This document shows, in pieces, positions 43,381-62,723 of a DNA stretch of 64,000 nucleotides. Below the pieces are notes generated by a model. That model was not told the DNA's origin. It did not search any database and worked only from the letters and a program-made list of their open reading frames with translations. The stretch lies in assembly GCF_040784935.1 (NCBI RefSeq), contig NZ_CP160680.1, positions 310,001 to 374,000 of the forward strand, written 5' to 3'. How positions within the stretch are numbered: position 1 is the first letter of the stretch; every line of letters starts with the position of its first letter. The stretch is from Lewinella sp. LCG006 (GTDB lineage: Bacteria; Bacteroidota; Bacteroidia; Chitinophagales; Saprospiraceae). The translations under genes and the position numbers were made by a program.

Positions 43381-43413
43381 AGCCCAAATCCCTATAATGC
43401 GGGCTTTTTTTTA
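43381..43413 (+). terminator. rho-independent terminator between transporter and glycosidase genes
   Basis: AGCCC (43381-43385) pairs with GGGCT (43401-43405), followed by TTTTTTTT. The stem is short, but the T-run is long. An ATG at 43397 lies inside it, which is why the glycosidase start is set at 43424. Confidence 0.6.
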
Positions 43414-43423
43414 TAAAAAACTA

Positions 43424-48737: not shown

Positions 48738-48890
48738 TAAATCTTGGGGTTGTTTATTCTTGAAAAGAAATACCAATGGGTTATTTCCAAAGATAAGGTA
48801 TTTGAAGGATTTCAGGTGGTAACAATATGCTGCTCAAAAAATCTTACCGTTAACTTTATGGTCAAAGCATTGTTCAAATGAAAACCATTA

Positions 48891-50030
48891 TTGCCCGTGC
48901 CCACACCCCTCCACAGCGACATTCTCATCCTCGGCGGTGGCCTGGCTGGCCTCACCAATGCCTTGCACCTCACCAAGGCTGGCCTGCATGTGCGGCTGCT
49001 GGAAAAAGGGGAATACCCACGCCATAAAGTTTGTGGGGAGTATATTTCCAATGAGGTCCTCCCCTATCTCGACAGCCTGGGGTTTGATCCCTTTGCGCTG
49101 GGGGCAACGGCGATGGAGCGCTGCTTGTTGAGTACCGTAGAGGGAAAAACCGTGGAGGCTCCTTTACCACTGGGAGGCTTCGGATTGAGTCGCTATCGGA
49201 TGGATAATGAGCTCTATAAATTGGTGCTGGCACAAGGGGGCGAAATCTTACAGGAAACCGTGGAAGACGTACAATTCAATCAGGATCAATTTACAGTCAG
49301 CACGCGCTCTGGTCAGGAGTATACAGCACCGCTGGTGATTGGTGCTTTTGGCAAACGCTCCAAACTTGATGTGGCGTTGGATCGCCCCTTTATGCAAAAG
49401 AATGCCCCTTATTTGGGCGTCAAAGCGCATTACGCGGGCGATTTCCCCGAAGATTTGGTCGCGCTTTACAACTTTGACGGAGGGTACTGTGGGGTGTCCA
49501 AAGTAGAAGAAGGTCGCATCAATATCTGCTACCTGGCCAATTACAACACGTTCAAGACTTACAAAAATCTGGCGACCTACGAGCAGGAAGTGGTCCGTAA
49601 AAACCCTTTACTCAACGAGATCCTCCACCAAGTCACACCGCTCTTTGAACGCCCGCTGACCATCAGTCAGATTTCTTTTGCCCGTAAGGAGAATGTCTGC
49701 GAACACGTCCTCATGAGCGGCGATGCGGCGGGGATGATCCACCCGCTCTGTGGCAATGGCATGGGCATGGCCATCACCAGTGCGCAACTGCTTTCCCAGG
49801 AAATCCTCCAGTATTTCACCAGCAAGCACCCGGATCGCCAACGATTAGAAGCCGCTTATTCCGCACAGTGGCAACAGCAATTTCGCAAGCGGCTCCTCTT
49901 CGGCCGGGCCTTCAACGCCCTGTTTTACCGCCCCCAATTCTTCGCAGCCTCTATTTCTCTGCTGACAATCCTGCCCGGTATGTTACCGTTTTTTATTCGG
50001 CAGACGCATGGGGAAGTGGTTGATGGTTGA
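48891..50030 (+). CDS. FAD-dependent oxidoreductase (geranylgeranyl-reductase/hydroxylase-like) of the type III PKS locus
   Basis: A 379-residue flavoprotein. The FAD motif ILILGGGLAGLTNALHLTKA is near the start, with KVCGEYISNEVLPYLDSLGF and LSRYRMDNELYKLVLAQ next, and the second FAD motif LMSGDAAGMIHPLCGNGMGM. This is the group-A hydroxylase / geranylgeranyl-reductase-type fold. The only starts in frame are TTG at 48891 or GTG at 48897, because a stop lies 12 bases upstream. The last four codons (VVDG) and stop overlap a 48-bp repeat. In type III PKS loci such enzymes often oxidise the aromatic product, for example to a quinone. It probably opens the locus, with the methyltransferase after a 294-base repeat-filled gap. 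Confidence 0.85.
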   Translation: MPVPTPLHSDILILGGGLAGLTNALHLTKAGLHVRLLEKGEYPRHKVCGEYISNEVLPYLDSLGFDPFALGATAMERCLLSTVEGKTVEAPLPLGGFGLSRYRMDNELYKLVLAQGGEILQETVEDVQFNQDQFTVSTRSGQEYTAPLVIGAFGKRSKLDVALDRPFMQKNAPYLGVKAHYAGDFPEDLVALYNFDGGYCGVSKVEEGRINICYLANYNTFKTYKNLATYEQEVVRKNPLLNEILHQVTPLFERPLTISQISFARKENVCEHVLMSGDAAGMIHPLCGNGMGMAITSAQLLSQEILQYFTSKHPDRQRLEAAYSAQWQQQFRKRLLFGRAFNALFYRPQFFAASISLLTILPGMLPFFIRQTHGEVVDG

Positions 50031-50223
50031 TGGTTCAAAAACTTCCGACTTGAAAAGGAGCAACCCTTACACCTCTTAACACAGTGCCTTTTTCGGTGCG
50101 GGGTGCGGTAATGTGCGGAGTGTGATTTAAAAATTCCGACTTCCCACTTCTGACTTCCGACCTTGAGCAGTTGTTGGTTGATGGTTCAAAAACTTCCGAC
50201 TTGAAAAGGAGCAACCCTTACAC
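50025..50223. repeat. 48-bp perfect direct repeat with dispersed repeat between copies
   Basis: GGTTGATGGTTCAAAAACTT and onward (50025-50072) recurs identically at 50176-50223. Between them lies ATTCCGACTTCCCACTTCTG (50133-50152) of the dispersed family, and GTGCGGAGTG, all also found around 53580-53640. The first copy supplies the stop codon of the FAD oxidoreductase. Confidence 0.92.
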
Positions 50224-50324
50224 GCTTACACCTTTCCAACCCTTACACCTCTTAACACAGCACCTTTGTGAAATAAACCAGCCCGCCCATCAAACATTCC
50301 CCCAAAATATTCCTTTCTTACTTG

Positions 50325-51050
50325 ATGATCTTTAGCAAAACACGCCACCGGAGCCAGGCTACCGAAATCATGGATGATTTCGAAATGAAGGGTGAGCTTC
50401 TGCGCTCCTCCCTTGATCAAATCGCCACTATCAATCAATGGTTGGGCGGCAATAGCGTTACGCTAGGAGGATTAAAAGCACTGCTACAGGGCCAACCCAC
50501 CTCGGTGCCTTTGCGTATCCTCGACTTAGGCTGTGGCAATGGCGATCTCCTGCGATTAGTGGCAAAATGGGGCAGAAAAACCGGCCGTCAAGTGGAGTTG
50601 ATCGGTATTGACGGCAACGCCTTTACGGTGAATTATGCACGAAAATTATCGCAAAATTTCCCAGAGATCAGCTACCGGGCAGAGATGATTCCCTCTCCCT
50701 TTTTAGCAGAAGGCAACTATGATGTCGTACTCTGTACCTTATTTCTACACCATTTCGCAACGGAAGACCTACAAAATCTGTTGGTGTTATTAAGTAGGCA
50801 GGCCAAGCTGGGTATTGTCATCAATGATTTGCACCGTAGTCATCTCGCTTACTTTTTATTCAACCTTATCACCCTGTTCATCCCCAACAGAATGATCAGA
50901 GAAGATGGCCTAACCTCCATCCTCCGTGGGTTTAAGAAAAAAGAATTGTTGGCAATAACGGAAAAGCTCCCACTCAAAAAGAGCCGACTCCGCTGGTGCT
51001 GGGCCTTCCGCTACCAGTGGATTTTGTGGACAGACAAAAAGACAGCATAA
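50325..51050 (+). CDS. class I SAM-dependent methyltransferase
   Basis: A 241-residue protein. The SAM-binding motif I is LRILDLGCGNGDLLRLVAKW, followed by VELIGIDGNAFTVNYARKLS (motif II), YDVVLCTLFLHHFATEDLQN (motif post-II) and GIVINDLHRSHLAYFLFNLI. This is like UbiE-related or phenol-type methyltransferases. The N-terminus (MDDFEMKGELLRSSLDQIAT, IN) is a typical lead-in helix. It lies directly upstream of the type III PKS gene with 90 bases between, so it probably methylates the polyketide product on carbon or oxygen. The ATG at 50325 is preferred over the TTG three bases earlier. Confidence 0.87.
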   Translation: MIFSKTRHRSQATEIMDDFEMKGELLRSSLDQIATINQWLGGNSVTLGGLKALLQGQPTSVPLRILDLGCGNGDLLRLVAKWGRKTGRQVELIGIDGNAFTVNYARKLSQNFPEISYRAEMIPSPFLAEGNYDVVLCTLFLHHFATEDLQNLLVLLSRQAKLGIVINDLHRSHLAYFLFNLITLFIPNRMIREDGLTSILRGFKKKELLAITEKLPLKKSRLRWCWAFRYQWILWTDKKTA

Positions 51051-51140
51051 TAAACCGCCCCAATGTCGCCAGGATCGCTTTTGGAATTTTCTTCAACAGC
51101 TCCTCCTATCGGCTTTTCGGCGAAAAAGAATTTGAAATTC

Positions 51141-52190
51141 ATGGTTAAAATAACCACGGTTGCCAAACAATTACCCCCTTACTCCCGGAGTACGGCGGAG
51201 ATTGTCCCCTTCATCGAGCACTGGCTGCACGGGCAGGACGAACGCTTTCAGCGCAAAGTGGTGAAAATTTTCCGCAACGCAGGCGTTGATCATCGCTACT
51301 CGATCATCCCTCCCGAGGAGATGTTTTTGCCGCGCACCTTTGCGGAAAACAACGACCGCTACATCAAAGGTGTCATCGAATTGAGTGAGGCCTGTCTTAC
51401 CAAAGCACTGGACAAGGCTGGCTGGACACCCAAAGATGTCGATTACATTATCACCGTCAGTTGCACGGGCTTCATGATTCCCTCGGTAGATGCCCATCTG
51501 ATCAACCGGCTGGATATGCGGCAAGACATTGTGCGCCTACCCGTGACGGAAATGGGCTGTGCGGCGGGCGTGTCGGGCATTATTTACGCCAAGAATTTCC
51601 TCCAGGCCAACCCGGGAAAGCGAGCGGCCGTGATAGCGGTAGAGTCACCCATGGCGACTTTCCAACAGGAGGATTTTTCGATGGTCAACGTCGTTAGCGC
51701 AGCAATCTTTGGCGACGGCGCAGCTTGTGTCCTGCTGTCTTCCCATCCTGATGACGAAGGGCCAAGTATTCTGCACGAAGAGATGTACCACTTCTACGAC
51801 GCACAACACATGATGGGTTTTGCCCTCAAAAATTCCGGTTTGGCCATGATCCTCGACCAGTCGGTACCCGATACCATTGAAGCCCACTTTGGGGATATCA
51901 TCCACCCTTTTTTGGCGAGAGCGGGCAGTACGATTGAGAAAATTGACCACCTGGTCTTTCACCCTGGCGGCAAAAAGATCGTCCAGATTGTGGAAGACCT
52001 TTTTGGCACGATGGGAAAAAATATTGATGATACAAAAGAGGTGTTGCGCCTTTACGGCAATATGTCGAGTGCGACGGTACTGTATGTCCTTGAACGCTTC
52101 CTCGAACGTGACATCCCCAAAGGAGAGCAGGGACTGATGCTGAGCTTTGGCCCCGGGTTTTCCGCGCAGCGGGTATTGCTGGAGTGGTAG
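51141..52190 (+). CDS. type III polyketide synthase (chalcone/stilbene synthase family)
   Basis: A 349-residue enzyme; the ATG at 51141 (MVKITTVAKQLPPYSR) fits the family start better than one 26 codons upstream. The thiolase-fold triad is complete: C140 in EMGCAAGVSG, H274 in LVFHPGGKK and N307 in LYGNMSSATVLYVLE. VSCTGFMIPSVDAHLINRL and the C-terminal LMLSFGPGFSAQRVLLEW are also family hallmarks. The enzyme extends an acyl starter with malonyl-CoA and cyclises it to a resorcinol, phloroglucinol or pyrone. The nearby reductase, dehydratase, ketosynthase and carrier protein suggest that a dedicated fatty acyl chain is the starter. The exact product cannot be read from sequence. Confidence 0.93.
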   Translation: MVKITTVAKQLPPYSRSTAEIVPFIEHWLHGQDERFQRKVVKIFRNAGVDHRYSIIPPEEMFLPRTFAENNDRYIKGVIELSEACLTKALDKAGWTPKDVDYIITVSCTGFMIPSVDAHLINRLDMRQDIVRLPVTEMGCAAGVSGIIYAKNFLQANPGKRAAVIAVESPMATFQQEDFSMVNVVSAAIFGDGAACVLLSSHPDDEGPSILHEEMYHFYDAQHMMGFALKNSGLAMILDQSVPDTIEAHFGDIIHPFLARAGSTIEKIDHLVFHPGGKKIVQIVEDLFGTMGKNIDDTKEVLRLYGNMSSATVLYVLERFLERDIPKGEQGLMLSFGPGFSAQRVLLEW

Positions 52191-52276
52191 GAGGAGTGTC
52201 GGTTGCTTATCTTTTTTTACTAAACCCAAATTGGATCACCTTATTTTTATACGCTCACTTACAAATAAAAGCACCA

Positions 52277-53053
52277 ATGAAAAACTGGGCGATCATATTA
52301 GGAGGTTCTTCAGGTCTGGGGCTGGCGACAGCCAAAGAACTGGCCCACTTGGGTTGGAACCTGGCCATCGTTCACCGCGATCGCAAATCGGTAATGAGAG
52401 AGGTAGACGCTCATTTCGCAGAGATCGCCGCGATGGGTGTGAGCTTGAGGACCTTTAACGTAGACGCCATGAAGCCGGAAAAGCGGCAAGCTGTCTTTGA
52501 CGAACTAAAGACGATTTTGCCCGCAGAAGGGAACATCGGTGTACTGGTGCACAGCATCGCCAAGGGTAACCTCAAACCGATGCTTTCGGAAGATGGTCCA
52601 CGCTTGCAACAGGATGATTTCCAGTTGACCATCGAAGCGATGGCCATCAGTCTGTACGAATGGGTGCAAGCCCTCTACGAGTCGAAATTGTTTGGCAAGG
52701 ATACCCGCATCATCAGTTTCACCAGCGAGGGTAATCGCAAAGCCTGGCAAAACTACGCCGCCGTATCGGCAGCAAAGGCGGCACTGGAGGCCATCACGAG
52801 GAATATCGCGCTGGAGTTTGCGCCTTATGGCTTTCGGGCCAATTGTGTACAAGCTGGCACTACTGATACCGCCTCGTTGCGGATGATCCCCGGCAGCGAA
52901 CAGCTCAAAGCTCACAGCCTGCAACGCAACCCTTTCGGTCGGCTCACCCAGCCCGAAGATGTAGCGCGTGTCGTAGGGCTTTTAGTACAACCCGAGGCCG
53001 CCTGGATCAATGGTGCCGTCATCCCGGTAGATGGCGGAGAACATATAAGGTAA
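52277..53053 (+). CDS. SDR enzyme, probable enoyl-ACP reductase (FabI/FabL-like)
   Basis: About 258 residues; the ATG at 52277 (MKNWAIILGGSSGLGLATAK) starts directly with the cofactor-binding strand. The glycine motif is GGSSGLGLA. The catalytic pair is Y160 and K167 in YAAVSAAKAALEAI, spaced Y-x6-K as in FabI and FabL rather than the Y-x3-K of ordinary SDRs. VLVHSIAKGNLKPM and FRANCVQAGTTDT also fit enoyl-ACP reductases. Its stop overlaps the start of the dehydratase by one base (TAATG), so the two are translationally coupled. It probably reduces the enoyl intermediate while the starter acyl chain is built. Confidence 0.83.
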   Translation: MKNWAIILGGSSGLGLATAKELAHLGWNLAIVHRDRKSVMREVDAHFAEIAAMGVSLRTFNVDAMKPEKRQAVFDELKTILPAEGNIGVLVHSIAKGNLKPMLSEDGPRLQQDDFQLTIEAMAISLYEWVQALYESKLFGKDTRIISFTSEGNRKAWQNYAAVSAAKAALEAITRNIALEFAPYGFRANCVQAGTTDTASLRMIPGSEQLKAHSLQRNPFGRLTQPEDVARVVGLLVQPEAAWINGAVIPVDGGEHIR

Positions 53054-53490
53054 TGGACAAGCAAACGATCCTAAAATTATTGCCGTATTCGGAGCCCTTC
53101 CTCTTTGTGGATACGCTGGAAGTGGTGACCGATGACGAGGTGGTGGGGTACTACACCTACCCCGAAGATGCGTTTTTCTACCGGGGGCATTTCAAAGATC
53201 ATCCCGTCACGCCGGGCGTCATCCTCACCGAGACGATGGCGCAGATCGGATTGGTATGTATGGGCATCTACCTGCTACGCGACAAAATAGCCGAAGGGCT
53301 GGAACCCGGCCTTGCCTTTTCCTCCCAAGAGGTCGATTATTACAAGGCCGTTTATCCCGGAGAAAAGGTGAAAGTGCAGGCGACGAAAGAATATTTCCGA
53401 TTCGGCAAATTGAAATGTAAGGTTGAAATGCACAATGCCGCAGGGGAGTTGGTTTGTAAGGGGGTATTGGCGGGGATGGGGAGGGTGTAA
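53053..53490 (+). CDS. 3-hydroxyacyl-ACP dehydratase (FabZ-like hotdog protein)
   Basis: A 145-residue hotdog-fold protein. The catalytic dyad is H46 in YRGHFKDHPVTPG and E60 in LTETMAQIGLV, matching the FabZ motifs. GLAFSSQEVDYYKAVYPGEK and KCKVEMHNAAGELVCKGVL are further family strands. It dehydrates 3-hydroxyacyl-ACP. Its start overlaps the reductase stop, and the second half of the presumed pathway (ketosynthase, ACP) resumes 4.1 kb downstream after a foreign-looking cassette. Confidence 0.88.
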   Translation: MDKQTILKLLPYSEPFLFVDTLEVVTDDEVVGYYTYPEDAFFYRGHFKDHPVTPGVILTETMAQIGLVCMGIYLLRDKIAEGLEPGLAFSSQEVDYYKAVYPGEKVKVQATKEYFRFGKLKCKVEMHNAAGELVCKGVLAGMGRV

Positions 53491-53796
53491 GGGTTTTGGT
53501 GGTTGATGGTTGATGGTTTTTGACCATCTTTTGTGTAAACCTATTTCAGGACAAGACATTCCAACCCTTACACCTTTTCAGGTGCGGAGTGCGGTTTAAA
53601 ATTCCGACTTCCCACTTCCGACTTCCGACTTTGAGCAGTTGATGGTTGGATTGGTGGTTTTTAGGACAAAACTGGTTCAGCCAGATAATCTTTTTGAGCA
53701 TACTACAAATTATAGTCTTCCAACCCAGAATTTGGCTGGGCGACAATGCTCGTAATTAACACTGTGCCCAGCCTCAATTTCTTAACCATTGAAAAA
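53491..53796. repeat. repeat-filled gap after the dehydratase gene
   Basis: GTGCGGAGTGCGGTTTAAAA followed by ATTCCGACTTCCCACTTCCG (53601-53620) and GAGCAGTTGATGGTTG closely resembles 50113-50180. TGGTTGATGGTTGATGG also recurs. No gene is seen. It marks the left edge of the AT-rich cassette. Confidence 0.85.
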
Positions 53797-55464
53797 TCAC
53801 CCCACTCCAATCGGACTAAAAACGGCCCAGAGGATTAAAACCAAGATTACCAAAACAAGGGTCAATACTACGTCAGTCGTCCATTTGAAAGTAGAAGTCT
53901 TGGTATCTCTTTGAAAAGTTACCAATTCTAAAGATGCTTCGGTTTGAGGAATACTCATTTTGCTTACGATCATTAAAACAGCAGCGCAGAAAAGGAATAA
54001 AAACAAAGCAAAATGTAAGAAATTGATTCCCAGAAAATAACCTAAAATACTATCCTCTGCAACGAGGATACTTTTATTATTCGACATAAACTCCATGACC
54101 AATCTGAAAATACCAATAACAAATCCTGTCCACAACGTAACAATTGCACCACGAGCGTTTATCCACTTAAAAAATAAACCAAGCAGAAAAACGGCGGCAA
54201 TCGGTGGAGAAATATAAGCTTGGATACTTTGGAGGTAATGAAAAATCCCTCCGCCCATGAGAGCATTCATAAAGGGAATCCAACCTAAACTTGCAACGAC
54301 TAAAACAATGGTTGCAATCCTCCCAAAGCGAACTAAGTCTTTTTCAGATGCATCAGGTTGGTGTTTTTGATAAAAATCAATCGTTAATAAAGTGGAACTG
54401 GAATTGAATGCAGAAGAGAGAGAACTCATCAAAGCTGCCAATAACCCAGCTATTGCCAAGCCTTTCAAACCGCTTGGCAAAAATTGAGTGATTAAGGCAG
54501 GTAAAGCTTGGTCTGCATTATCCATCGAATAACTAATCATCCCCTTTTGCAGCAAAGCATAAGCAATCACTCCCGGAATAAAGAAGAGAAAGACCGGTAA
54601 TAATTTCAAATAACCGGCAAACAAAGCCCCCTTACGAGCACTGCTGACATCTTTGGCCGATAACGCCCGTTGTACGATGTACTGGTCTGTACACCAATAC
54701 CAAACCCCTAAAATCGGAGCACCAAACAACATACCCGTCCACGGATACTCTGTATCTTCCATCGGTCGCCATAAATTAAAAAAACGATCAACGGAAGGGT
54801 TGCCTTCCGTTTGTGCGGCCAACGCAATAGTGTTGATCATTTCGTCCCAACCGCCCAACTGGTACAAACCAAAAATTGAAATTACAGCTGTTCCCAGTAT
54901 TAAAATAAATGCTTGAACCATATCCGTATAAATCACCGCTTTTAGTCCACCAAGCACGGTATAAAAACCTGTTGCGACAACCGTGATAATCGCGCCAGTC
55001 CAAAAAGGGATTCCCAAAACTTCAAAAACCAAGGCCCCAGCAAATATGATCAGCGATATCTTGGTAATAATGTATGCCAAAACAGAAACGACCGATAAAT
55101 AAGTGCGGCAAGCTCTCGAATACCGTTTCTCCAAAAATTCAGGCATGGTGTAAACCCCCGTCCGTAAATAAAAAGGAACGAATACCCAACCAAATAATAT
55201 CAAAACCAAGGAAGCTAATATTTCGAAATTAGCCATCGGCATATTGGCTCTTGCACCAGCACCCGACACTCCTAAAATGATTTCTGAACCAATATTGGAG
55301 GCAAAAAGCGATGCACCAATGACTACCCAACCTTGATTTTTACCTGCCAAAAAGTAATCAACAGATGAAAAAGTCTCATCCCCTTTTTTTTCAGAAGCCC
55401 ATTTGGCTATCCAAAGAATAAATCCAAAATAAATGGCAATGATTGAGAAATCTAAAAATTGCAT
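53797..55464 (-). CDS. sodium:solute symporter (SSS/SGLT family)
   Basis: A 555-residue inner-membrane transporter with about 14 predicted helices; the ATG at 55464 (MQFLDFSIIAIYFGFILWIA) is the natural start. SSS marks include SSVDYFLAGKNQGWVVIGAS, LFASNIGSEIILGVSGAGA, VPFYLRTGVYTMPEFLEKRY, VLGGLKAVIYTDMVQAFILI, and LAGLLAALMSSLSSAFNSSS with the sodium-site Ser. It resembles the sugar (SGLT-like) branch. The gene is AT-rich compared with its surroundings (18 G/C of 60 in the line at 54001). It follows the PhyH gene on the same strand, with a hairpin in the gap, so the dioxygenase substrate or a related compound may be its cargo. Confidence 0.9.
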   Translation of the reverse strand: MQFLDFSIIAIYFGFILWIAKWASEKKGDETFSSVDYFLAGKNQGWVVIGASLFASNIGSEIILGVSGAGARANMPMANFEILASLVLILFGWVFVPFYLRTGVYTMPEFLEKRYSRACRTYLSVVSVLAYIITKISLIIFAGALVFEVLGIPFWTGAIITVVATGFYTVLGGLKAVIYTDMVQAFILILGTAVISIFGLYQLGGWDEMINTIALAAQTEGNPSVDRFFNLWRPMEDTEYPWTGMLFGAPILGVWYWCTDQYIVQRALSAKDVSSARKGALFAGYLKLLPVFLFFIPGVIAYALLQKGMISYSMDNADQALPALITQFLPSGLKGLAIAGLLAALMSSLSSAFNSSSTLLTIDFYQKHQPDASEKDLVRFGRIATIVLVVASLGWIPFMNALMGGGIFHYLQSIQAYISPPIAAVFLLGLFFKWINARGAIVTLWTGFVIGIFRLVMEFMSNNKSILVAEDSILGYFLGINFLHFALFLFLFCAAVLMIVSKMSIPQTEASLELVTFQRDTKTSTFKWTTDVVLTLVLVILVLILWAVFSPIGVG

Positions 55465-55495
55465 GTTAGTTGATTTTCGTTTTGTTTTAAACACC

Positions 55496-55530
55496 AAAAG
55501 TGAGACTCCAAAAAATGGAGTCTCACTTTT
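55496..55530 (-). terminator. perfect 15-bp hairpin between PhyH and symporter genes
   Basis: AAAAGTGAGACTCCA (55496-55510) pairs perfectly with TGGAGTCTCACTTTT (55516-55530) around a 5-base A loop. On the minus strand it ends in a T-rich tail (TTTTGG), so it may be a leaky terminator that lowers symporter expression relative to the dioxygenase. Confidence 0.75.
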
Positions 55531-55570
55531 CCGGAAATTAGAGGTTAGCTTTCTTTGACTAAAGACAAGT

Positions 55571-56554
55571 TTACCATTTTTTCAAGCCCAGTAATTTCTC
55601 TCCTAAATCGGATAATTCAGCTCTTTCGTATTTTGTTTGCTCCCAATTCCGAGGATCTCCAGGGAAGGCATAACCTTCAGGGGCGATGCGATTTTTCCAA
55701 GAATTAACGCGCCATTCTTTCAGCGCTTCATTATCTTCTTGAGCAGGCATCATGGAGATGTATTGCGCAATTCTCACTTTATCCTCCGAATGATTGGGAC
55801 GAATACCGTGGGGTTCGGAGCTGTTAAAAATCAACAAGTCACCTGCTTCCAGCGGCACTTTCACAATTTTGTCTTCCAAGCCAGTCGTATCTGGTTTGAA
55901 ATGATTTCTATCTTCAGGCTGTGTTAATTTCCAAGCATCATAATTTCTAAACAACCAAGGAATACATTGAAAACCGCCCATATTTTCATCCGTTTGGTCG
56001 GCTAATGCTAGTACCCCTTGTACATTTTGGGGTTTAGTATCAGGATCGTAATCCCAATGGATGAATCCTTTGTATTCATACCCCGGACGCATGGGAAAGT
56101 TAAGATTGGCTCGGTCTATCGTTACCCATAATTTCTCCGTTCCCCAAATATCTACGAATGCCTCATACACTTTTTTTGTTTGGCGGTTATTCCAAAGGTG
56201 TTGGTTATTATAGACTTCCACCATGCCCGTCCCTGCCAATTCTTTCATCTTCATTTCGGCACGAGGGGCTGTGTACCAAGTGTTTTTATCATTTGGATCC
56301 TTGCCTTCAAATTCCCAAAGAAAGGCAGCCGTCGCTTCTGCTTGTTCACGAGGAACAGCATTTTTGATAACCACGTAACCCTGTTCTAGCCAAAAACTCC
56401 ATTGGTCCTTCGTTAGTACCTTTAGCGTATCTTCCGTAGCCGCTGTTCTCAGTTGTACATTGCTACTTTTGGCAGTAGAAGGATTGCCGGGAATATCCTT
56501 GTGTTGATTGTCGGGAACCATTGTGGTGGACATCGTTGGATTGGTGTTTTTCAT
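55571..56554 (-). CDS. phytanoyl-CoA dioxygenase (PhyH) family oxygenase
   Basis: About 327 residues from the ATG at 56554; a second ATG seven codons in is also possible. The first 45 residues are low-complexity and variable. The Fe(II)/2-oxoglutarate site is shown by HWDYDPDTK (HxD) and SSEPHGIRPNHSEDKVRIAQ (distal His and Arg). DQWSFWLEQGYVVIKNAVPR and EAGDLLIFNSSEPHG are also family features. The substrate is unknown; members hydroxylate acyl-CoA, ectoine or other small molecules. It is divergent from the AraC regulator, 169 bases away, which probably controls it together with the symporter. Confidence 0.88.
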   Translation of the reverse strand: MKNTNPTMSTTMVPDNQHKDIPGNPSTAKSSNVQLRTAATEDTLKVLTKDQWSFWLEQGYVVIKNAVPREQAEATAAFLWEFEGKDPNDKNTWYTAPRAEMKMKELAGTGMVEVYNNQHLWNNRQTKKVYEAFVDIWGTEKLWVTIDRANLNFPMRPGYEYKGFIHWDYDPDTKPQNVQGVLALADQTDENMGGFQCIPWLFRNYDAWKLTQPEDRNHFKPDTTGLEDKIVKVPLEAGDLLIFNSSEPHGIRPNHSEDKVRIAQYISMMPAQEDNEALKEWRVNSWKNRIAPEGYAFPGDPRNWEQTKYERAELSDLGEKLLGLKKW

Positions 56555-56723
56555 AACAGCCGAATTTTTGGTTGAATAATTTACCCAAACCACTTCGTGC
56601 CGGGTATAACACAAAGCTGAGCATTTTCTTTATTGGGAATTTTACGACATTTAGCAAAAAGTTGTACAATATTGATTAATTTTAGTTTTTGACCATGCTA
56701 ATATTCAAATATTGTGAAAGAAT

Positions 56724-57563
56724 ATGAAAATTCAGCTCGAAACCATCACCAGTCAGGATAAATCATTTAGTATGATGTTCAATCCACGCCTGAGTGATTT
56801 ATGTTACTGGCACTTCCATCCTGAGTATGAATTGGTCTATATTGAAGCAGCCACAGGTACTCGACATGTAGGAGATCACATATCTACTTATGAACAGAAT
56901 GATTTGGTTTTGATTGGCTCAAATATCCCTCATTTAAACTTCGATTACGGCGTCAAGACGGAATATAGAAAAGTAGTAATTCACTTTAAAAAAGATTTTA
57001 TTGAGACTCATGTTAATCGGGTACCCGAGTTATCTCCCTTTACTCAATTATTTAACAAGTCCAAATATGGTCTGGCATTTAGAGGAGGAATTAAAAAACA
57101 AATCGGGGAAAAACTATTTCACTTTGAACAGTTAAATGCCTTTCAGCAGTATATTCAAATGCTAGAGGTGTTAGACCTGCTTGCAAATGCTCCTGATGCT
57201 GAATTATTACATACACAACCTTACAGTAATAAATTTAGTGAAAGAGAGCAAGGCAGGTTAAGAAATATCTATGCCTTTGTCGATAAAAATTATCATAAAA
57301 AAATAGCGTTATCAGAAGTAGCAGCAATCAGTAACATGTCTAAAGAGGCTTTTTGCCGATACTTTAAGAAAGTAAGTAATTATACCTTTATTGAGTTTTT
57401 AAACCGCTATCGTATAAGTCAATCGAAGCGTCTTTTAATGTCTGGAAAGAGTGTTAGTGATGCCTGTTATCAAACAGGATTTGAAAGCTTGTCTTATTTT
57501 AATCGTACGTTTAAAAAAGTGACGAATGAAAATCCTCGCTATTTCAGAAAAAGGTATTTATAG
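56724..57563 (+). CDS. AraC family transcriptional regulator
   Basis: A 279-residue regulator. The cupin part reads WHFHPEYELVYIEAATGTRH, GDHISTYEQNDLVLIGSNIP and HLNF, typical of sugar-responsive AraC proteins. The C-terminal DNA-binding domain has KKIALSEVAAISNMSKEAFC with RYFKKVSNYTFIEFLNRYRI, and SVSDACYQTGFESLSYFNRT with FKKVTNENPRYFRK. The gene is AT-rich (23 G/C of 60 in the line at 57301). Its divergent position points to control of the PhyH-symporter pair. It ends only 21 bases before the ketosynthase gene, so readthrough from its promoter into the PKS-locus genes is possible. Confidence 0.9.
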   Translation: MKIQLETITSQDKSFSMMFNPRLSDLCYWHFHPEYELVYIEAATGTRHVGDHISTYEQNDLVLIGSNIPHLNFDYGVKTEYRKVVIHFKKDFIETHVNRVPELSPFTQLFNKSKYGLAFRGGIKKQIGEKLFHFEQLNAFQQYIQMLEVLDLLANAPDAELLHTQPYSNKFSEREQGRLRNIYAFVDKNYHKKIALSEVAAISNMSKEAFCRYFKKVSNYTFIEFLNRYRISQSKRLLMSGKSVSDACYQTGFESLSYFNRTFKKVTNENPRYFRKRYL

Positions 57564-57584
57564 TTAATTGCGGCAACAAAAATT

Positions 57585-58859
57585 ATGAAAGAAAGAGTCG
57601 TCATCACGGGAGTAGGCGTAGCGGCACCCAATGGTGTGGGTAAAGCAGCATTTACGACAGCCATTCGGGCGGGGCAATCCGGGATTCGTTATTACGAGAC
57701 GCTCCAGGAAATGAATTTCTCGTGTTGTATTGGGGGAGCGCCAGAGATAAGTGAAGAGCTAAAGTTGCAGTATTTTTCGCCTTTGATGTTGCGCAATTTC
57801 CTCAGCTCCGGGATCCTCTACGGTTGTATAGCGGGCATGGATGCCTGGGCCGATGCTGGTTTGGAGGTAAACGAAGAAGTACCCGATTGGGACAGCGGCA
57901 TTGTCATGGGCATTGGCAGCTCCGGGGTAGAAAAAATGCGCGAGGCCGCTTACCTGCTCGACAGTGGAAAAGTAAAACGATTGGGTAGCACCTCCGTTCC
58001 CCAGATCATGGCCAGTGGTGTGAGTGCCTACCTGGGGGGAATGCTGGGTTTGGGCAACCAAGTGACCACCAACTCCTCGGCCTGCACCACCGGAACAGAG
58101 TCGATTTTGATGGCTTACGAACGGGTAGCGAACGGCCACGCCAAACGGATGCTGGCCGGAAGCACCAGCGACAGCGGCCCCTACATCTGGGGAGGCTTTG
58201 ACGCAATGAAAGTGATGAACTTCCGCAGCAATGATATCCCCCAGGCCGCCTCTCGCCCAATGAGTGCCTCCGCAGCAGGTTTTGTGCCGGGCAGTGGTGC
58301 CGGGGCCTTGGTGCTGGAAACCTTGAGTAGCGCCCAAGCCCGCGGAGCAACCATCTACGCTGAAGTACTAGGTGGTGCGATCAATGCTGGCGGCCAAAGA
58401 CAGGGTGGCACCATGACGGCACCCAACTCGAGGGCAGTACAACGTTGCATCAAAGACGCTTTACGCAATAGCGGCGTCGACGCCAACGAAGTAGACCTCA
58501 TCAACGGCCACCTTACCGCTACCATCAAAGACCCCGAAGAAATACAAAACTGGGCAGCAGCCTTGGGTAGAAAGGGAGCAGACTTTCCGTATATTCATTC
58601 CCTCAAAGCTATGATTGGACACTGTATCAGTGCTGCCGGAAGCATTGAAAGTGTAGCCGCCGTGCTGGGTTTACACCATAATTTTGTGTTTCCTTCCATC
58701 AATTGTGAAGACATTCATCCAGAAATTTTGGAAATCATACCTAGCGAAAAAATTGTCCGCGAACAGCGAGAAGATATTCCCGTAAACATCATTGCGAAAG
58801 CAGGGTTTGGATTCGGTGATGTCAACGCCTGTTTACTATTAAAAAAATACCGTCTCTAA
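57585..58859 (+). CDS. beta-ketoacyl-ACP synthase (FabF-like) of the type III PKS locus
   Basis: A 424-residue thiolase-fold condensing enzyme. It starts MKERVVITGVGVAAPNGVGK. The active-site Cys is C167 in NSSACTTGTES; the two His are H309 in INGHLTAT and H346 in KAMIGHCISAAGS, with Lys 341 nearby. The triad is complete, but the first His motif reads GHLTAT instead of the usual AHGTST, a noticeable change beside the active site. YLGGMLGLGNQVTTNSSA and AGGQRQGGTMTAPNS are also typical of FabF. It should elongate acyl-ACP chains with malonyl-ACP, together with the ACP 33 bases downstream. GC content returns to the level of the PKS genes (33 of 60 at 58201). Confidence 0.9.
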   Translation: MKERVVITGVGVAAPNGVGKAAFTTAIRAGQSGIRYYETLQEMNFSCCIGGAPEISEELKLQYFSPLMLRNFLSSGILYGCIAGMDAWADAGLEVNEEVPDWDSGIVMGIGSSGVEKMREAAYLLDSGKVKRLGSTSVPQIMASGVSAYLGGMLGLGNQVTTNSSACTTGTESILMAYERVANGHAKRMLAGSTSDSGPYIWGGFDAMKVMNFRSNDIPQAASRPMSASAAGFVPGSGAGALVLETLSSAQARGATIYAEVLGGAINAGGQRQGGTMTAPNSRAVQRCIKDALRNSGVDANEVDLINGHLTATIKDPEEIQNWAAALGRKGADFPYIHSLKAMIGHCISAAGSIESVAAVLGLHHNFVFPSINCEDIHPEILEIIPSEKIVREQREDIPVNIIAKAGFGFGDVNACLLLKKYRL

Positions 58860-58892
58860 CCATTTGTATGGTCAGAGAACCAATAAAAAAGA

Positions 58893-59141
58893 ATGAATAA
58901 AACAGAAAGAATTGCCACTATCAAACGCATCGTAGCACCCTACGTACAGGAAAAAGCAGCCCTGGAAAACCTCAATGAAGACACCGATTTTATCAAAGAT
59001 CTAAAAATCAACTCCGCCCACCTCGTAGACATCATCCTCGACGTAGAAGATGAATTCGACATTGAGATCGAAGACGAAGCCATGGAGCAAATGCTCACGG
59101 TAGGCGCTGCTTTGGCGATTATTGAAGACAAGGTCAAGTGA
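58893..59141 (+). CDS. acyl carrier protein
   Basis: An 82-residue acidic helical protein. The phosphopantetheine attachment site is S41 in LKINSAHLVDIILDVED, where the usual DSL motif is NSA. EFDIEIEDEAMEQMLTVG and AALAIIEDKV complete the third and fourth helices. It lies between the ketosynthase and the phosphopantetheinyl transferase, whose GTG start overlaps its stop, so it is almost certainly the carrier for this locus rather than the housekeeping AcpP. Confidence 0.92.
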   Translation: MNKTERIATIKRIVAPYVQEKAALENLNEDTDFIKDLKINSAHLVDIILDVEDEFDIEIEDEAMEQMLTVGAALAIIEDKVK

Positions 59142-59779
59142 TCGGGAACGACATTGTGGACCTTAGACAAGCCCGGCAGGAGAGCAACTGGCGGCGGCCG
59201 CGCTATCTAGCTAAAATCTTCACGCCGGAAGAACAGCAATTGATTGCCGATGCCCACAGACCAACGGCCATGGTGTGGTTGCTATGGAGTTGTAAAGAAG
59301 CCGCTTACAAACGATGGGCCAGTGAGCACCAGCAACGCAGCTTTTTTCCCAACAAAATTGAAGTGCAAGGTTTCCAGCAAGTTCAAGAAACGGGCTTACA
59401 CCACGCAGCAGCTGATGGAGAAAGTAGTCATCTTCCTTATACCAGCAGCGTACAAATCATGGGACATTGCTACACCGTACACACCTTCTTGAAGGGCGAC
59501 CTCATCCACAGTTGGACATTGCCCGAAGAAAAAAAGCTCCTCCTCCGTAAAGTTGACGCGCTTCCTTGCTCCACTTTATCGGAGGCAACGAGATCTCTTG
59601 TGTACAAGCACCTTGAACAATGCTTTCAATGGTCGCCAGCAGACCTAAGCATTCAAAAAAATGAACAAGGACGGCCCTTCGTTTATTATCAAAACAAGCA
59701 ATCCCCCTTGTCTTTATCACTGGCACATCACGGGCGCTATGGAGGTTTTGTGCTAGCGGGAAGTGAGCATTTTCTTTAA
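59138..59779 (+). CDS. 4'-phosphopantetheinyl transferase
   Basis: A 213-residue enzyme that moves phosphopantetheine from CoA to the Ser of a carrier protein. It begins IGNDIVDLRQARQESNW, the magnesium-binding GxDxVD-like motif, and has the second motif LWSCKEAAYKRWA (W-x-x-KEA-x-x-K). LSLSLAHHGRYGGFVLA is at the end. The length is like the Sfp/AcpS-intermediate types. The GTG start overlaps the ACP stop (GTGA), indicating coupled translation. Its likely target is the ACP just upstream. Confidence 0.88.
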   Translation: MIGNDIVDLRQARQESNWRRPRYLAKIFTPEEQQLIADAHRPTAMVWLLWSCKEAAYKRWASEHQQRSFFPNKIEVQGFQQVQETGLHHAAADGESSHLPYTSSVQIMGHCYTVHTFLKGDLIHSWTLPEEKKLLLRKVDALPCSTLSEATRSLVYKHLEQCFQWSPADLSIQKNEQGRPFVYYQNKQSPLSLSLAHHGRYGGFVLAGSEHFL

Positions 59780-59801
59780 GCGTATATTTAATCATCTCTT
59801 A

Positions 59802-62042
59802 ATGGTTCCTACAAATATATTCCAGCGCAGCCTCCTTTCCATCATCCGATTTCGGTGGTTTATTGCGGCTTTATTGTTGCTCTTAACCATTGCAGGTGCC
59901 CTTTCTACCGCCGTCAATTTAAGGATCAATAACGCAATATCGATCTGGTTTTTAGAGGATAATGCGGACTATCAAGATTACTTGCAATTTCAGCAAGAAC
60001 GAGGATCCGACGAAATCATCATCGCTATGCTTCCTGTGAAGGAAGCACTCAAGGATACTGCCATCCAGCTCCTGCAAGCATTGCACCAGCAGATCGATTC
60101 ACTCCCTAACGTCACCGCTACTTTTAGTCTGGCCAATGCCCGTTACCCCGTTTATTCGAATAAAAAAATCTACTACCGCCCAGTCTACCAACCTGGCCGC
60201 ACCCCCGAGCAAATAGATCAACTGCTGGCAGAGCTGCCCGCAATCAAGACACAGTTGTTGACCAGCAATGGCAAACACCTTTTCTTTTATGTCCAACTGA
60301 ACCCTACTGACCAAATTGAAGGTCAACGCAATGAAATCGTTACGGGCATTGAAGACCTCATCTATGGTGTTGCTCCAAATGCCCGAATTTCGGGTCAGCC
60401 CATCCTTAATGAGGCTTTCAATGATACCATCTATAAGGAGAGTAATTTTTTCGCGGTCACTACCGTCATTGTCATCTTACTGCTGCTGATTTTCTTACTG
60501 CCTCATTGGCTCTACGTGCCCATTGCGCTAGTTGCCATTGTGGTTCCCATTAGCATCTTGATGGGAGCCATGACGGGGCTGGGATATTCCTTGAACCTGA
60601 TTTCCATGTTGATTCCTACCATCCTCATGGTTTACAGTGTGGGAGACGCCGTGCACGTCATCAATATTTTTCACCAGCACGTAAAGGAACATCCCCAACA
60701 AGCACGGCAACAGCAAATTGTGGAAGCCTTGCAAAAGAGTCTAAAGCCCTGCTTCTTCACTACCCTCACCACTGTTATAGGTTACCTGGCCCTCTATTTT
60801 TCACCATTGCCCGCTTTTAAGATAATGGGCCTTTTCACCTTTGCGGGAATGCTACTGGCCTTTGTATTGGTCTACATCGTGACGGCCATCGGTTTTTATT
60901 GGCTTGGCAGCCTAAAACTCGAAGCCCGTGTTCGTAAGATCAATATCAGCGGTATGGTCCAACGCATCAATGGCTGGACTACTCACCGTGCGCCCCTCAT
61001 TTTGGCCTTGGCGGGATTCGTTGCCATCGGAGGCATATTCGCTGCCTTTGAGCTGGAAGTCAACACCGACTCCCTGAACATGTTGGGCGATGGCAAAGCC
61101 AAAACGGACCTCCATGCGATCGAAGCTAAAATTGGTGGAAATGCCCGTTTCCAGATCAATATTCGCAAACGCGATGGTGAGACTTTGCTCAACCAGGAAG
61201 ACCTGGAAAAACTAGCGGCTTTTCAGCAAAAAATAGACGAGCATCCCCTCCTCGCCACACCTATTTCTATTATCAACTTTAAGACCTTTCTGGAAAACCG
61301 CCGTTCTGCACTGGCCGTCTTCAACCCCGTCAACTTGCCCAACCTGCTGGAAGCACAGCCCGACAATGCCAACCCTTTCTTCTCTCTTTTTTCTGAAGAT
61401 TTTTCGGAAGTAAGCATCGCCGCCAATGTTCGGGAAATCAAAACCAAACAACTGGAAGAACTCCTCGCTACTATTGACCACGACTTTGCTCAAGCTTTTG
61501 ATCCAAACGATTATGAATTACAAGTGCATGGTTTTCTTGCCCTGTTTGCGCAGTTGAACCAGTTTATTTTACAAACCCAGTTCCGATCTTTCGGACTTGC
61601 TTTTCTGATGGCCTTCGTCATCCTGCTCTACTTTATTGGTGATTTAAAAACCACCCTCTTGGCTCTGATCCCCAATTTGCTCCCTATTTTTCTCACCATT
61701 ATCGTGATGGCTTTATTTGGCATCGCTCTGGAAGCGGCTAATGCTATGCTGGCGCCCATCATGCTAGGTGTAGCGATGGACGATACGATCCATTTGATGA
61801 GTAAATACCGGGAACAACGATCAGCAGGCATCCCCGTGACAGGCGCCATAGATCACGCTTTGAATTATACTGGCGGAGCACTGTTTTCTACCACTATTGC
61901 CTTGGTTTGTGGCTTTCTCGTAGTGGGCATGAGTGGGGTAATTTCCGTGAGCACCTTTGGCCTGCTTTGTGCTTTTACCGTCCTGACCGCTTTAATTGCT
62001 GATATCATCGTTTTGCCTGCACTGCTGAAGAAAAGCGCATAA
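59802..62042 (+). CDS. RND superfamily (MMPL-type) transporter of the PKS locus
   Basis: About 746 residues from the ATG at 59802, 22 bases after the transferase stop; a GTG upstream would overlap that gene. It is an RND-type membrane protein with two similar halves, each one helix, a large periplasmic loop and five helices. FRWFIAALLLLLTIAGALST starts the first half. VYSVGDAVHVINIFHQHV and MLGVAMDDTIHLMSKYREQR are the paired helix-4 motifs with acidic residues for proton coupling. The family exports lipids and hydrophobic metabolites. Placed at the end of the ketosynthase-ACP-transferase operon, it may export or insert the polyketide lipid. Confidence 0.88.
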   Translation: MVPTNIFQRSLLSIIRFRWFIAALLLLLTIAGALSTAVNLRINNAISIWFLEDNADYQDYLQFQQERGSDEIIIAMLPVKEALKDTAIQLLQALHQQIDSLPNVTATFSLANARYPVYSNKKIYYRPVYQPGRTPEQIDQLLAELPAIKTQLLTSNGKHLFFYVQLNPTDQIEGQRNEIVTGIEDLIYGVAPNARISGQPILNEAFNDTIYKESNFFAVTTVIVILLLLIFLLPHWLYVPIALVAIVVPISILMGAMTGLGYSLNLISMLIPTILMVYSVGDAVHVINIFHQHVKEHPQQARQQQIVEALQKSLKPCFFTTLTTVIGYLALYFSPLPAFKIMGLFTFAGMLLAFVLVYIVTAIGFYWLGSLKLEARVRKINISGMVQRINGWTTHRAPLILALAGFVAIGGIFAAFELEVNTDSLNMLGDGKAKTDLHAIEAKIGGNARFQINIRKRDGETLLNQEDLEKLAAFQQKIDEHPLLATPISIINFKTFLENRRSALAVFNPVNLPNLLEAQPDNANPFFSLFSEDFSEVSIAANVREIKTKQLEELLATIDHDFAQAFDPNDYELQVHGFLALFAQLNQFILQTQFRSFGLAFLMAFVILLYFIGDLKTTLLALIPNLLPIFLTIIVMALFGIALEAANAMLAPIMLGVAMDDTIHLMSKYREQRSAGIPVTGAIDHALNYTGGALFSTTIALVCGFLVVGMSGVISVSTFGLLCAFTVLTALIADIIVLPALLKKSA

Positions 62043-62130
62043 AATAAATCTCCTAATCTGCAATTTCTTTACAAAAGACCCAACCACCTGCGCTTGATCC
62101 ACGTCTTGCCCAATAAAGTATCTTCGTATC

Positions 62131-62658
62131 ATGACCAGAATAATCCTACTCCTACTATTATCCATCCAATTGCTTTCTTGTGAAAAAGAATCAGCAAACC
62201 CCAATCAAAACCCAGAAACCTTGATCTATTCCACGAGTTTTGAAGATCAGACGACCTTAGAGGAAGAAGGCTGGGAAGGGGTTTATACGCTGCTTGAAGA
62301 TAGCCCAGCTAGCGGAGGCAGCTATTGCCTGGCCCTTGAGCCTCAATGGTTGCCCGGCCTTGGCGAAGCATTTTATGCGCCGACCCTATCTAACAACAGT
62401 AATTACCGGATAGATTTTTGGTTTAAAACCATCAACTGGGAAGGGACCTTCCTCATCAATAAGCGGCTTTCAGGTAGTGATGCAGAAGAAAACCTGCTCA
62501 CCATTTCCTTAACGGAAGAAGATTGGACCTTCGCCTCTCATAGTTTTGTCCTTGAATTGGCGGAAAATGAAACGCTCGTTGTCTATTTTTCTGCTGGAGG
62601 CACCGAAGTGGTAAGCGGCAAAGTATTGGTAGATGAGCTTTCCATTTACCGGGAATAA
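62131..62658 (+). CDS. hypothetical lipoprotein, carbohydrate-binding-like
   Basis: A 175-residue lipoprotein (lipobox QLLSCEKE). The mature part is beta-rich: LIYSTSFEDQTTLEEEGWEG, GGSYCLALEPQWLPGLGEAF, NYRIDFWFKTINWEGTFLIN and VLVDELSIYRE. This is the pattern of a jelly-roll, CBM-like domain, but no family is certain. It follows the exporter by 88 bases on the same strand and may or may not belong to its operon. The function is unknown. Confidence 0.7.
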   Translation: MTRIILLLLLSIQLLSCEKESANPNQNPETLIYSTSFEDQTTLEEEGWEGVYTLLEDSPASGGSYCLALEPQWLPGLGEAFYAPTLSNNSNYRIDFWFKTINWEGTFLINKRLSGSDAEENLLTISLTEEDWTFASHSFVLELAENETLVVYFSAGGTEVVSGKVLVDELSIYRE

Positions 62659-62689
62659 CAAAAACGGGCACCCCGTGATGGAGTGCCCG
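62657..62689 (-). terminator. terminator for the minus-strand glycosidase gene
   Basis: CGGGCAC (62665-62671) pairs with GTGCCCG (62683-62689). On the minus strand the stem is followed by TTTTTGTT. It lies between convergent genes. Confidence 0.75.
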
Positions 62690-62723
62690 CGCAATTTAGG
62701 TAAGGGTTTCTCAAAGTTTAATT

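What the first reader, a model, noticed from the sequence alone, without database searches (positions are those of the whole stretch)
48891..62042. Type III PKS locus with its own FAS-like enzymes, carrier protein, transferase and exporter
Seen: FAD oxidoreductase, methyltransferase, type III PKS (C140/H274/N307), Y-x6-K reductase, FabZ-like dehydratase, ketosynthase (C167/H309/H346), ACP (S41), phosphopantetheinyl transferase and MMPL-type exporter, all on the plus strand with several start/stop overlaps. Known: type III PKSs usually take acyl-CoA starters; some take acyl chains from dedicated fatty acid synthases. Inference: a separate ACP-bound chain is built, passed to the type III PKS, cyclised, methylated and oxidised to an aromatic or quinone lipid, then exported. 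A ketoreductase is missing, so primary FabG may be borrowed, or the chain may be unusual.
Basis: partly seen in the sequence, partly recalled or inferred. Interest (0 to 1): 0.72.

Follow-up and report, generated by a model that had tools for sequence, protein, structure and literature searches.

The report
Resorcinol-lipid operon with private fatty-acid synthase
This stretch carries a gene set, shared by many Bacteroidota, that probably builds its own fatty chain on a dedicated carrier protein and hands it to a ring-making enzyme to give a phenolic lipid; here the set is split in two by an unrelated insertion.

Summary
The nine genes are real. In relatives they form one operon: FAD oxidoreductase - methyltransferase - type III PKS - (FabL-like enoyl reductase) - FabZ-like dehydratase - ketosynthase - ACP - PPTase - (MMPL exporter). 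Two same-genus genomes have all nine contiguous; the window has a 4.1-kb insert (symporter, PhyH-like, AraC). The locus is not a flexirubin or aryl-polyene cluster.

Best reading: a discrete (type II) counterpart of Azotobacter arsABCD joined to a hidABC-like trio. A private ACP-bound chain primes the PKS, giving a methylated alkylresorcinol-type lipid. Product, starter hand-over and FAD step are inferred; a quinone is not supported.

Unexpected: the reductase-dehydratase-ketosynthase-ACP-PPTase cassette, with N-S-A instead of D-S-L around the ACP serine, also occurs without the PKS, in two genomes next to darB. It looks like a portable chain-maker serving unrelated head-group enzymes. My searches of open-licence papers listed no description of this gene set.

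The parts
48891..50030 (+). FAD-dependent oxidoreductase, geranylgeranyl-reductase/UbiH-like superfamily (TTG start as listed; true start uncertain)
   Evidence: TIGR02032 105.6 bits, below its cut-off 158.8; found in 81 of 81 loci with room
50325..51050 (+). class I methyltransferase (PRK06202-like)
   Evidence: Methyltransf_25 44.7 bits over cut-off; NF004851 142.5 bits, below its cut-off 243; hit in 95 of 95 loci
51141..52190 (+). type III polyketide synthase; start set by comparison with the same-genus relative
   Evidence: Chal_sti_synt N and C domains over cut-off; Cys/His/Asn in 95 of 95 loci; PDB best Pks11, 1u0m, CylI
52277..53053 (+). FabL-like SDR, Y-x6-K, putative enoyl-ACP reductase
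   Evidence: best PDB match enoyl-ACP reductase 3oic, E 1.3e-27; NF005975 FabL 148.9 bits, below its cut-off 328; Tyr/Lys spacing
53053..53490 (+). FabZ-like 3-hydroxyacyl-ACP dehydratase
   Evidence: PF07977 over cut-off; NF000582 FabZ 64.9 bits, below its cut-off 113; His/Glu in 89 of 89 rows
53496..57576 (.). insert that splits the operon: SSF symporter (53797-55497, -), PhyH-like (55571-56614, -), AraC regulator (56724-57563, +)
   Evidence: colinear same-genus genome L199 has 131 bp here; families; KS starts 22 bases after AraC
57585..58859 (+). FabF/FabB-type ketosynthase of the cassette
   Evidence: PF00109 and PF02801 over cut-off; Cys/His/His/Lys in all 87 rows with letters there
58893..59141 (+). 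acyl carrier protein with N-S-A motif in place of D-S-L
   Evidence: PF00550 26.3 bits over cut-off 20.8; Asn before Ser41 in 85 of 85 rows; the genome's ACP beside FabF has GADSLD
59138..59779 (+). 4'-phosphopantetheinyl transferase
   Evidence: PF01648 54.7 bits over cut-off; one of two PF01648 matches in the genome
59802..62042 (+). MMPL/HAE3-type RND transporter, putative exporter; start by comparison with the relative
   Evidence: PF03176 86.9 bits; directly after PPT in L199 at 83% identity

Best explanation
One biosynthetic operon for a phenolic (alkylresorcinol-type) lipid, split in this genome by a 4.1-kb insertion. Steps: (1) the PPTase arms the private N-S-A ACP; (2) KS, FabZ-like dehydratase and FabL-like enoyl reductase, with ketoreductase (FabG), malonyl loading and priming borrowed from primary metabolism, build an acyl chain on that ACP; (3) the type III PKS takes the chain as starter, extends it with malonyl units and cyclises it; (4) the methyltransferase and FAD enzyme modify the ring; (5) MMPL, where present, moves the lipid outward. 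Shown: gene content, conserved linkage, catalytic residues, the insertion. Inferred: the borrowed steps, hand-over from ACP to PKS, resorcinol rather than pyrone, and the nature of steps 4 and 5.
For: Linkage: 33 of 395 phylum-sample genomes have the PKS ortholog (profile E <= 1e-90); all 33 have the KS on the same contig at 448-1,530 bp, 5,398 bp in the window. KS in 79 and dehydratase in 77 of 81 loci with room, order kept in 80 of 81, median gaps of -4 bp at FADox-MT, MT-PKS, DH-KS and ACP-PPT, using longest reading frames. More distant PKS homologues (33-36%) have none of the partners in 5 of 5 loci looked at. PKS distances correlate with those of KS 0.88, DH 0.79, SDR 0.70, PPT 0.62 and ACP 0.53 (0 of 500 permutations as high each; shared descent alone can give this). 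Split: two same-genus genomes have nine genes together. Head half: same three functions as hidABC and planctomycete operons; planctomycete PKSs made C15/C17 alkylresorcinols (PMC10896814: abstract, passages, section 13). The column that I equate with CHS Phe265 (recalled) is Met in 91 of 95, Ile in 4, as reported for the HidC clade, predicted to use acyl-ACP (PMC8086630 passages); that paper's Gln/Asn for the CylI clade agrees with Asn in the CylI row. Tail half is separate from the genome's ACP-FabF pair at 2.488 Mb and a FabA/FabZ-family gene at 1.007 Mb. Precedent: arsABCD has two type III PKSs, a FAS and a PPTase (PMC4824345 passages).
Against: No product is known to me for any member. The cassette occurs without the PKS, so its chain need not be a PKS starter. 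L065, L090 and L207 have the PKS without KS although there is room. L204 has PKS-KS-ACP-PPT-MMPL without SDR, DH, FADox or MT hits, and L216 and L217 have PKS-SDR-DH-KS without FADox, MT, ACP or PPT hits. The reductase changes state 8 times on the tree, at least 7 forced by well-supported branches, so full chain reduction may not be constant. No ketoreductase, acyltransferase or priming KSIII was found in the operon. In the planctomycete test only a single methylation was seen and the FAD enzyme's role stayed open.
Confidence: 0.65

Rival explanations
1. The PKS makes an alkylpyrone (or both pyrone and resorcinol) from the same private chain; the rest of the scheme stands.
For: The best PDB profile match is Pks11, titled alpha-pyrone synthesis (217 bits); single type III PKSs often give both (recalled).
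Against: Gene company is that of hidABC and the planctomycete alkylresorcinol operons, and the Phe265-column Met matches what is reported for the HidC clade, not Pks11, which has Leu there. Direct comparison with HidC was not possible.
Confidence: 0.2
2. The cassette makes a separate acyl chain, for example one esterified to the phenol or used elsewhere in the envelope, while the PKS takes ordinary acyl-CoA or acyl-ACP from primary metabolism.
For: The KS exists without the PKS ortholog in 5 of 295 class-sample genomes and 5 of 395 phylum-sample genomes (G114 is in both), and L065, L090, L207 have the PKS without it.
Against: No acyltransferase was found in the operon; 33 of 33 phylum-sample PKS genomes carry the KS near the PKS.
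Confidence: 0.15
3. The SDR is a ketoreductase, so KS + KR + DH make a polyene, as in aryl polyenes, and the product is a polyenyl resorcinol pigment.
For: A ketoreductase is otherwise missing; the SDR family is broad (NF009466 FabG 114.4 bits, below its cut-off 222).
Against: Y-x6-K, with no Lys at Y+4 in any of the 61 rows with a letter there (of 62 hits); FabL is the best NCBIfam model and the best PDB entry.
Confidence: 0.12
4. The second half is part of a flexirubin or aryl-polyene cluster that happens to lie near the PKS trio.
For: In two relatives the cassette sits next to dar genes.
Against: Of 6 PF00109 matches in this genome, one is the window KS, one FabF beside ACP, one a KS among biotin-type genes and three are thiolases. 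The three KSIII-like genes at the two other PF00195 places are not DarB by NCBIfam at E <= 1e-20; this is not an exhaustive search for dar genes. The cassette is contiguous with the PKS in relatives.
Confidence: 0.03

Closest known systems
arsABCD of Azotobacter vinelandii (alkylresorcinol/alkylpyrone operon)
   Same: Type III PKS with its own fatty-acid synthase and its own PPTase in one operon; the chain made there is the PKS substrate (PMC4824345 passages).
   Different: ArsA is one type I synthase (title of its reference 5, and PMC3098273 passages), with two PKSs (ArsB, ArsC); here the synthase is split into discrete KS, DH, ER and ACP, with one PKS plus methyltransferase and FAD enzyme.
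hidABC (hierridins, cyanobacteria) and the planctomycete methyltransferase-oxidoreductase-PKS operons
   Same: The same three functions in one operon; PKS reported to make alkylresorcinols (PMC10896814 abstract, passages, section 13); Met in the Phe265 column as reported for the HidC clade (PMC8086630 passage).
   Different: Gene order differs (MT-oxidoreductase-PKS there, oxidoreductase-MT-PKS here); the operons as described have no dedicated chain-making genes. No direct sequence comparison with HidABC could be made here.
Cylindrocyclophane cluster (CylB ACP, CylI type III PKS)
   Same: Carrier-bound chain passed on to a type III PKS (PMC8086630 passage); CylI is among the best PDB matches.
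   Different: The chain starts from decanoate on CylB and is extended by type I PKSs; different tailoring.
srsABC of Streptomyces griseus
   Same: PKS plus tailoring enzymes; alkylresorcinols oxidised to alkylquinones (PMC10896814 passage).
   Different: No dedicated FAS; methyltransferase of another type (both recalled).
dar/flexirubin clusters of Bacteroidota
   Same: Resorcinol lipids; the SDR-DH-KS-ACP-PPT cassette adjoins darB/darH in L219 and a gene 75% identical to that DarB in L137.
   Different: Head group made by DarA/DarB (PMC9606717 passages), not by a type III PKS.

Membership tests
Type III polyketide synthase | Chalcone/stilbene-synthase N and C domains with Cys-His-Asn triad | tested here: met
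   PF00195 66.4 and PF02797 68.4 bits over cut-off; triad in 95 of 95 loci
Type III polyketide synthase | Condenses malonyl units on a starter and cyclises | not testable with these tools
   needs an enzyme assay
FAS-coupled type III PKS operon (ars-like) | PKS, chain-making enzymes, carrier and PPTase in one conserved operon | tested here: met
   PPT hit in 68 and ACP in 85 of 95 loci, so not in every member
FAS-coupled type III PKS operon (ars-like) | FAS is the type I enzyme ArsA, with two PKS genes | tested here: not met
   discrete KS, ACP, DH and SDR genes; one PKS
FAS-coupled type III PKS operon (ars-like) | Direct transfer of the chain from carrier to PKS | not testable with these tools
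   needs an in vitro transfer assay
hid-type operon | Methyltransferase, oxidoreductase and PKS genes together | tested here: met
   FADox, MT and PKS in 81 of 81 loci with room, but not in L204, L216, L217; order of the first two swapped relative to hidAB
hid-type operon | Sequence orthology of all three proteins to HidABC | not tested
FabL-type enoyl reductase | SDR with Y-x6-K | tested here: met
   Tyr in 59 and Lys in 61 of 62 hits; no Lys at Y+4
FabL-type enoyl reductase | Curated FabL model cut-off | tested here: not met
   NF005975 148.9 bits against cut-off 328: family-level likeness only
flexirubin/dialkylresorcinol cluster | DarA/DarB and several KS genes | tested here: not met
   none among the window proteins scanned around the operon; three KS genes and three thiolases behind the 6 PF00109 matches of the genome
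aryl-polyene cluster | Paired KS genes with KR, DH, ACPs and aryl starter enzymes (recalled) | tested here: not met
   one KS, no KR and no aryl starter gene among the proteins scanned

The most novel reading that the evidence does not exclude
The SDR-DH-KS-ACP-PPT block is a portable, self-arming fatty-chain module with a carrier of its own kind (mostly N-S-A instead of D-S-L around the phosphopantetheine serine). Bacteroidota plug it into unrelated head-group makers: type III PKS (most often), DarB-type resorcinol synthesis, and loci with glycosyltransferase and GNAT or PhyH genes. The private carrier would keep specialised lipid tails apart from membrane-lipid synthesis, and gain or loss of the enoyl reductase (8 changes on the tree) would switch tails between fully reduced and other types.
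Probability: 0.4. Interest if true: 0.7.

Novelty: new variant of a known kind. Interest (0 to 1): 0.52.

Why it matters
Surveys count type III PKS clusters as 9% (PMC7440613) and 10.74% (PMC10734526) of the biosynthetic clusters of their Flavobacteriaceae sets, and the passages I saw name no product for them; how many are this operon I did not measure. Defining one conserved operon with a private carrier and chain maker gives a concrete product class and a short list of knock-outs. If the hand-over is true, it is a discrete type II counterpart of the type I FAS to type III PKS route known from Azotobacter, spread over a large phylum. The portable cassette would also explain how unrelated lipid head groups obtain private tails.

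Tried and rejected

In one search I fetched 20 of the 28 other family genomes with a hit; 4 of 20 lack KS, of which L202, L206 and L208 end at a contig edge and L207 does not. The 62 SDR hits include a few weak ones elsewhere in the locus. The KS tree has long branches and weak forks.
Full report
OBSERVATION. The window is part of a 7.5-Mb single-contig genome; its relatives named are nearly all Bacteroidota by title. Starts were revised by comparison with a same-genus genome: PKS 51141, SDR 52277, MMPL 59802. With these only SDR/DH and ACP/PPT overlap.

THE TWO HALVES BELONG TOGETHER. In the class sample 76 of 295 genomes have any PKS match at E <= 1e-20; 16 including this one are at 53% identity or more, then there is a gap to 37%. 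Those 16 are among the 21 of 295 with the KS at E <= 1e-80. In the phylum sample 33 of 395 genomes have the PKS and 38 have the KS; all 33 are among the 38, on the same contig, at 448-1,530 bp in 32 and 5,398 bp in the window. Of 95 fetched ortholog loci (15, 80), tblastn finds FADox in 94, MT in 95, SDR in 62 (some weak or elsewhere), DH in 89, KS in 88, ACP in 85, PPT in 68 and MMPL in 10. Among the 81 with room on both sides the order is as in the window in 80, and the DH-KS gap is -88 to 182 bp in the 77 measured. The five loci around 33-36% PKS homologues show none of the partners.

THE SPLIT IS AN INSERTION. The two other same-genus genomes with the PKS (L199, 96% identical; L200, 78-79%) have all nine genes in a row. 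L199 gives colinear DNA matches to the window from 48518 to 63494; the one multi-kilobase difference is 4,081 bp in the window (53496-57576) where L199 has 131 bp. As other relatives are contiguous too, insertion in the window's lineage is the simplest reading. The inserted genes are an SSF symporter, a PhyH-like protein and an AraC regulator. KS begins 22 bases after the AraC stop, so the second half may now be read from another promoter (inference).

WHAT THE ENZYMES ARE. PKS: Cys/His/Asn in 95 of 95; the column that I equate with CHS Phe265 (numbering recalled) is Met in 91 and Ile in 4. PMC8086630 (passages) reports Met there for the HidC clade, predicted to use acyl-ACP, and Gln/Asn for the CylI clade; the CylI row has Asn, which supports the column assignment. 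SDR: the best PDB match is an enoyl-ACP reductase (3oic; FabL by recall), Y-x6-K spacing; NCBIfam FabL is the best model but below its cut-off, so I call it FabL-like. ACP: Asn before the serine in 85 of 85 rows, Ala in 82 and Ser in 3 after it, whereas the genome's ACP beside FabF reads GADSLD. The FAD enzyme belongs to a broad reductase/hydroxylase superfamily; its reaction is open. A gene of one ORF family lies upstream of the PKS operon in 17 of 95 loci; the two members scanned are YceI-like. PMC10896814 (passage) mentions a lipid/isoprenoid-binding protein gene beside one planctomycete-type PKS operon.

HOW IT LIKELY WORKS. The private KS, DH, SDR and ACP with FabG, FabD and FabH functions from primary metabolism make a chain; the PKS uses it as starter; MT and FADox modify the ring; MMPL exports where present. 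arsABCD is the functional precedent: a FAS, two PKSs and a PPTase in one operon (PMC4824345 passages; PMC3098273 passages). hidABC and the planctomycete operons are the precedent for the head half, with alkylresorcinols after heterologous expression, a single, probably C-, methylation when MT and the FAD enzyme of Gimesia maris were co-expressed, and the FAD enzyme's role left open (PMC10896814 abstract, passages and section 13). Hence a quinone is possible but not supported.

RESULTS AGAINST. L065, L090 and L207 have the PKS without the KS although there is room. L204 has PKS-KS-ACP-PPT-MMPL without FADox, MT, SDR or DH hits, and L216 and L217 have PKS-SDR-DH-KS without FADox or MT hits. The SDR is missing in 35 of 95 scored rows of the tree (96 rows, 1 not scored) and changes state 8 times, 7 at least, so it is dispensable or replaceable. 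ACP and PPT distances follow the PKS less closely (0.53 and 0.62) than KS (0.88), and such correlations also follow from shared ancestry.

THE CASSETTE ALONE. In the class sample five genomes have the KS but not the PKS ortholog (one of them, G114, has a 33% PKS homologue). Their six loci show the cassette or parts of it: ACP-SDR-DH-KS-PPT alone (L134, L136), with a KSIII (L135), beside dar-type genes (L137), and DH-KS-ACP-PPT, in L138 from KS on at a contig edge, with PhyH and glycosyltransferase genes (L138, L139). In the phylum sample five genomes have KS only: G114, which is L137's genome, and four new ones. Of these L219 lies beside DarB (614.7 bits, cut-off 550) and DarH (443.1, cut-off 300), and L220-L222 beside GNAT and glycosyltransferase genes, without PPT hits and, in L220 and L222, without SDR. 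L137's KSIII is 75% identical to L219's DarB. In the KS tree the six class-sample cassette KS (L134-L139) mostly fall outside the PKS-linked KS; the place of L137's is unsure, and several forks are weak. ACP motifs, read, are N-S-A in L134, L136-L139 and L219, N-S-T in L135, N-S-M in L221 and D-S-F in L220 and L222, so the motif is not universal.

THE OWN GENOME. Six PF00109 matches are the window KS, a FabF beside an ACP, a KS among biotin-type genes and three thiolases. Two PF01648 and two PF07977 matches include the window's. The two other PF00195 places hold a FabH over its cut-off and, at the other place, two KSIII-like genes, none matching DarB at E <= 1e-20. I did not search for DarA.

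NOVELTY. Type III PKSs fed by a dedicated FAS, and the MT/oxidoreductase/PKS trio, are known. The combination with discrete type II parts and a private N-S-A carrier is a new variant as far as the searches show; the two surveys I looked into (passages of PMC7440613 and PMC10734526) only count type III PKS clusters as a class in the passages shown.

Noticed in passing
window 50019-50270 and 53497-53690: Intergenic repeat units between FADox and MT and after DH belong to an interspersed family; the first stretch has 57 BLAST matches (itself included) in the own genome.
   Followed up: partly
L134-L139, L219-L222: The SDR-DH-KS-ACP-PPT cassette (or parts of it) occurs without the type III PKS ortholog, in two cases directly beside darB-type genes and in three beside GNAT and glycosyltransferase genes.
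   Followed up: partly
window 53496-57576: A symporter/PhyH/AraC block has inserted into the operon; its origin and whether it is mobile were not traced.
   Followed up: partly
window 43397-44746 (+) and 62724-63971 (-): Two look-alike proteins, both with a glycosyl hydrolase family 2 TIM-barrel match (40.6 and 32.8 bits), lie about 18 kb apart in opposite directions on either side of the operon region; their likeness to each other was judged by eye.
   Followed up: partly
L204, L207, L216, L217: Stripped-down relatives: PKS with KS-ACP-PPT-MMPL only (L204); PKS with FADox, two MT hits and MMPL but no chain-making genes (L207); PKS-SDR-DH-KS without detected FADox or MT (L216, L217).
   Followed up: no
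L076: Record titled Algicola sp. (placed in Pseudomonadota by name) carries the operon and its PKS sits among Flavobacteriaceae in the tree; probably a naming issue.
   Followed up: no
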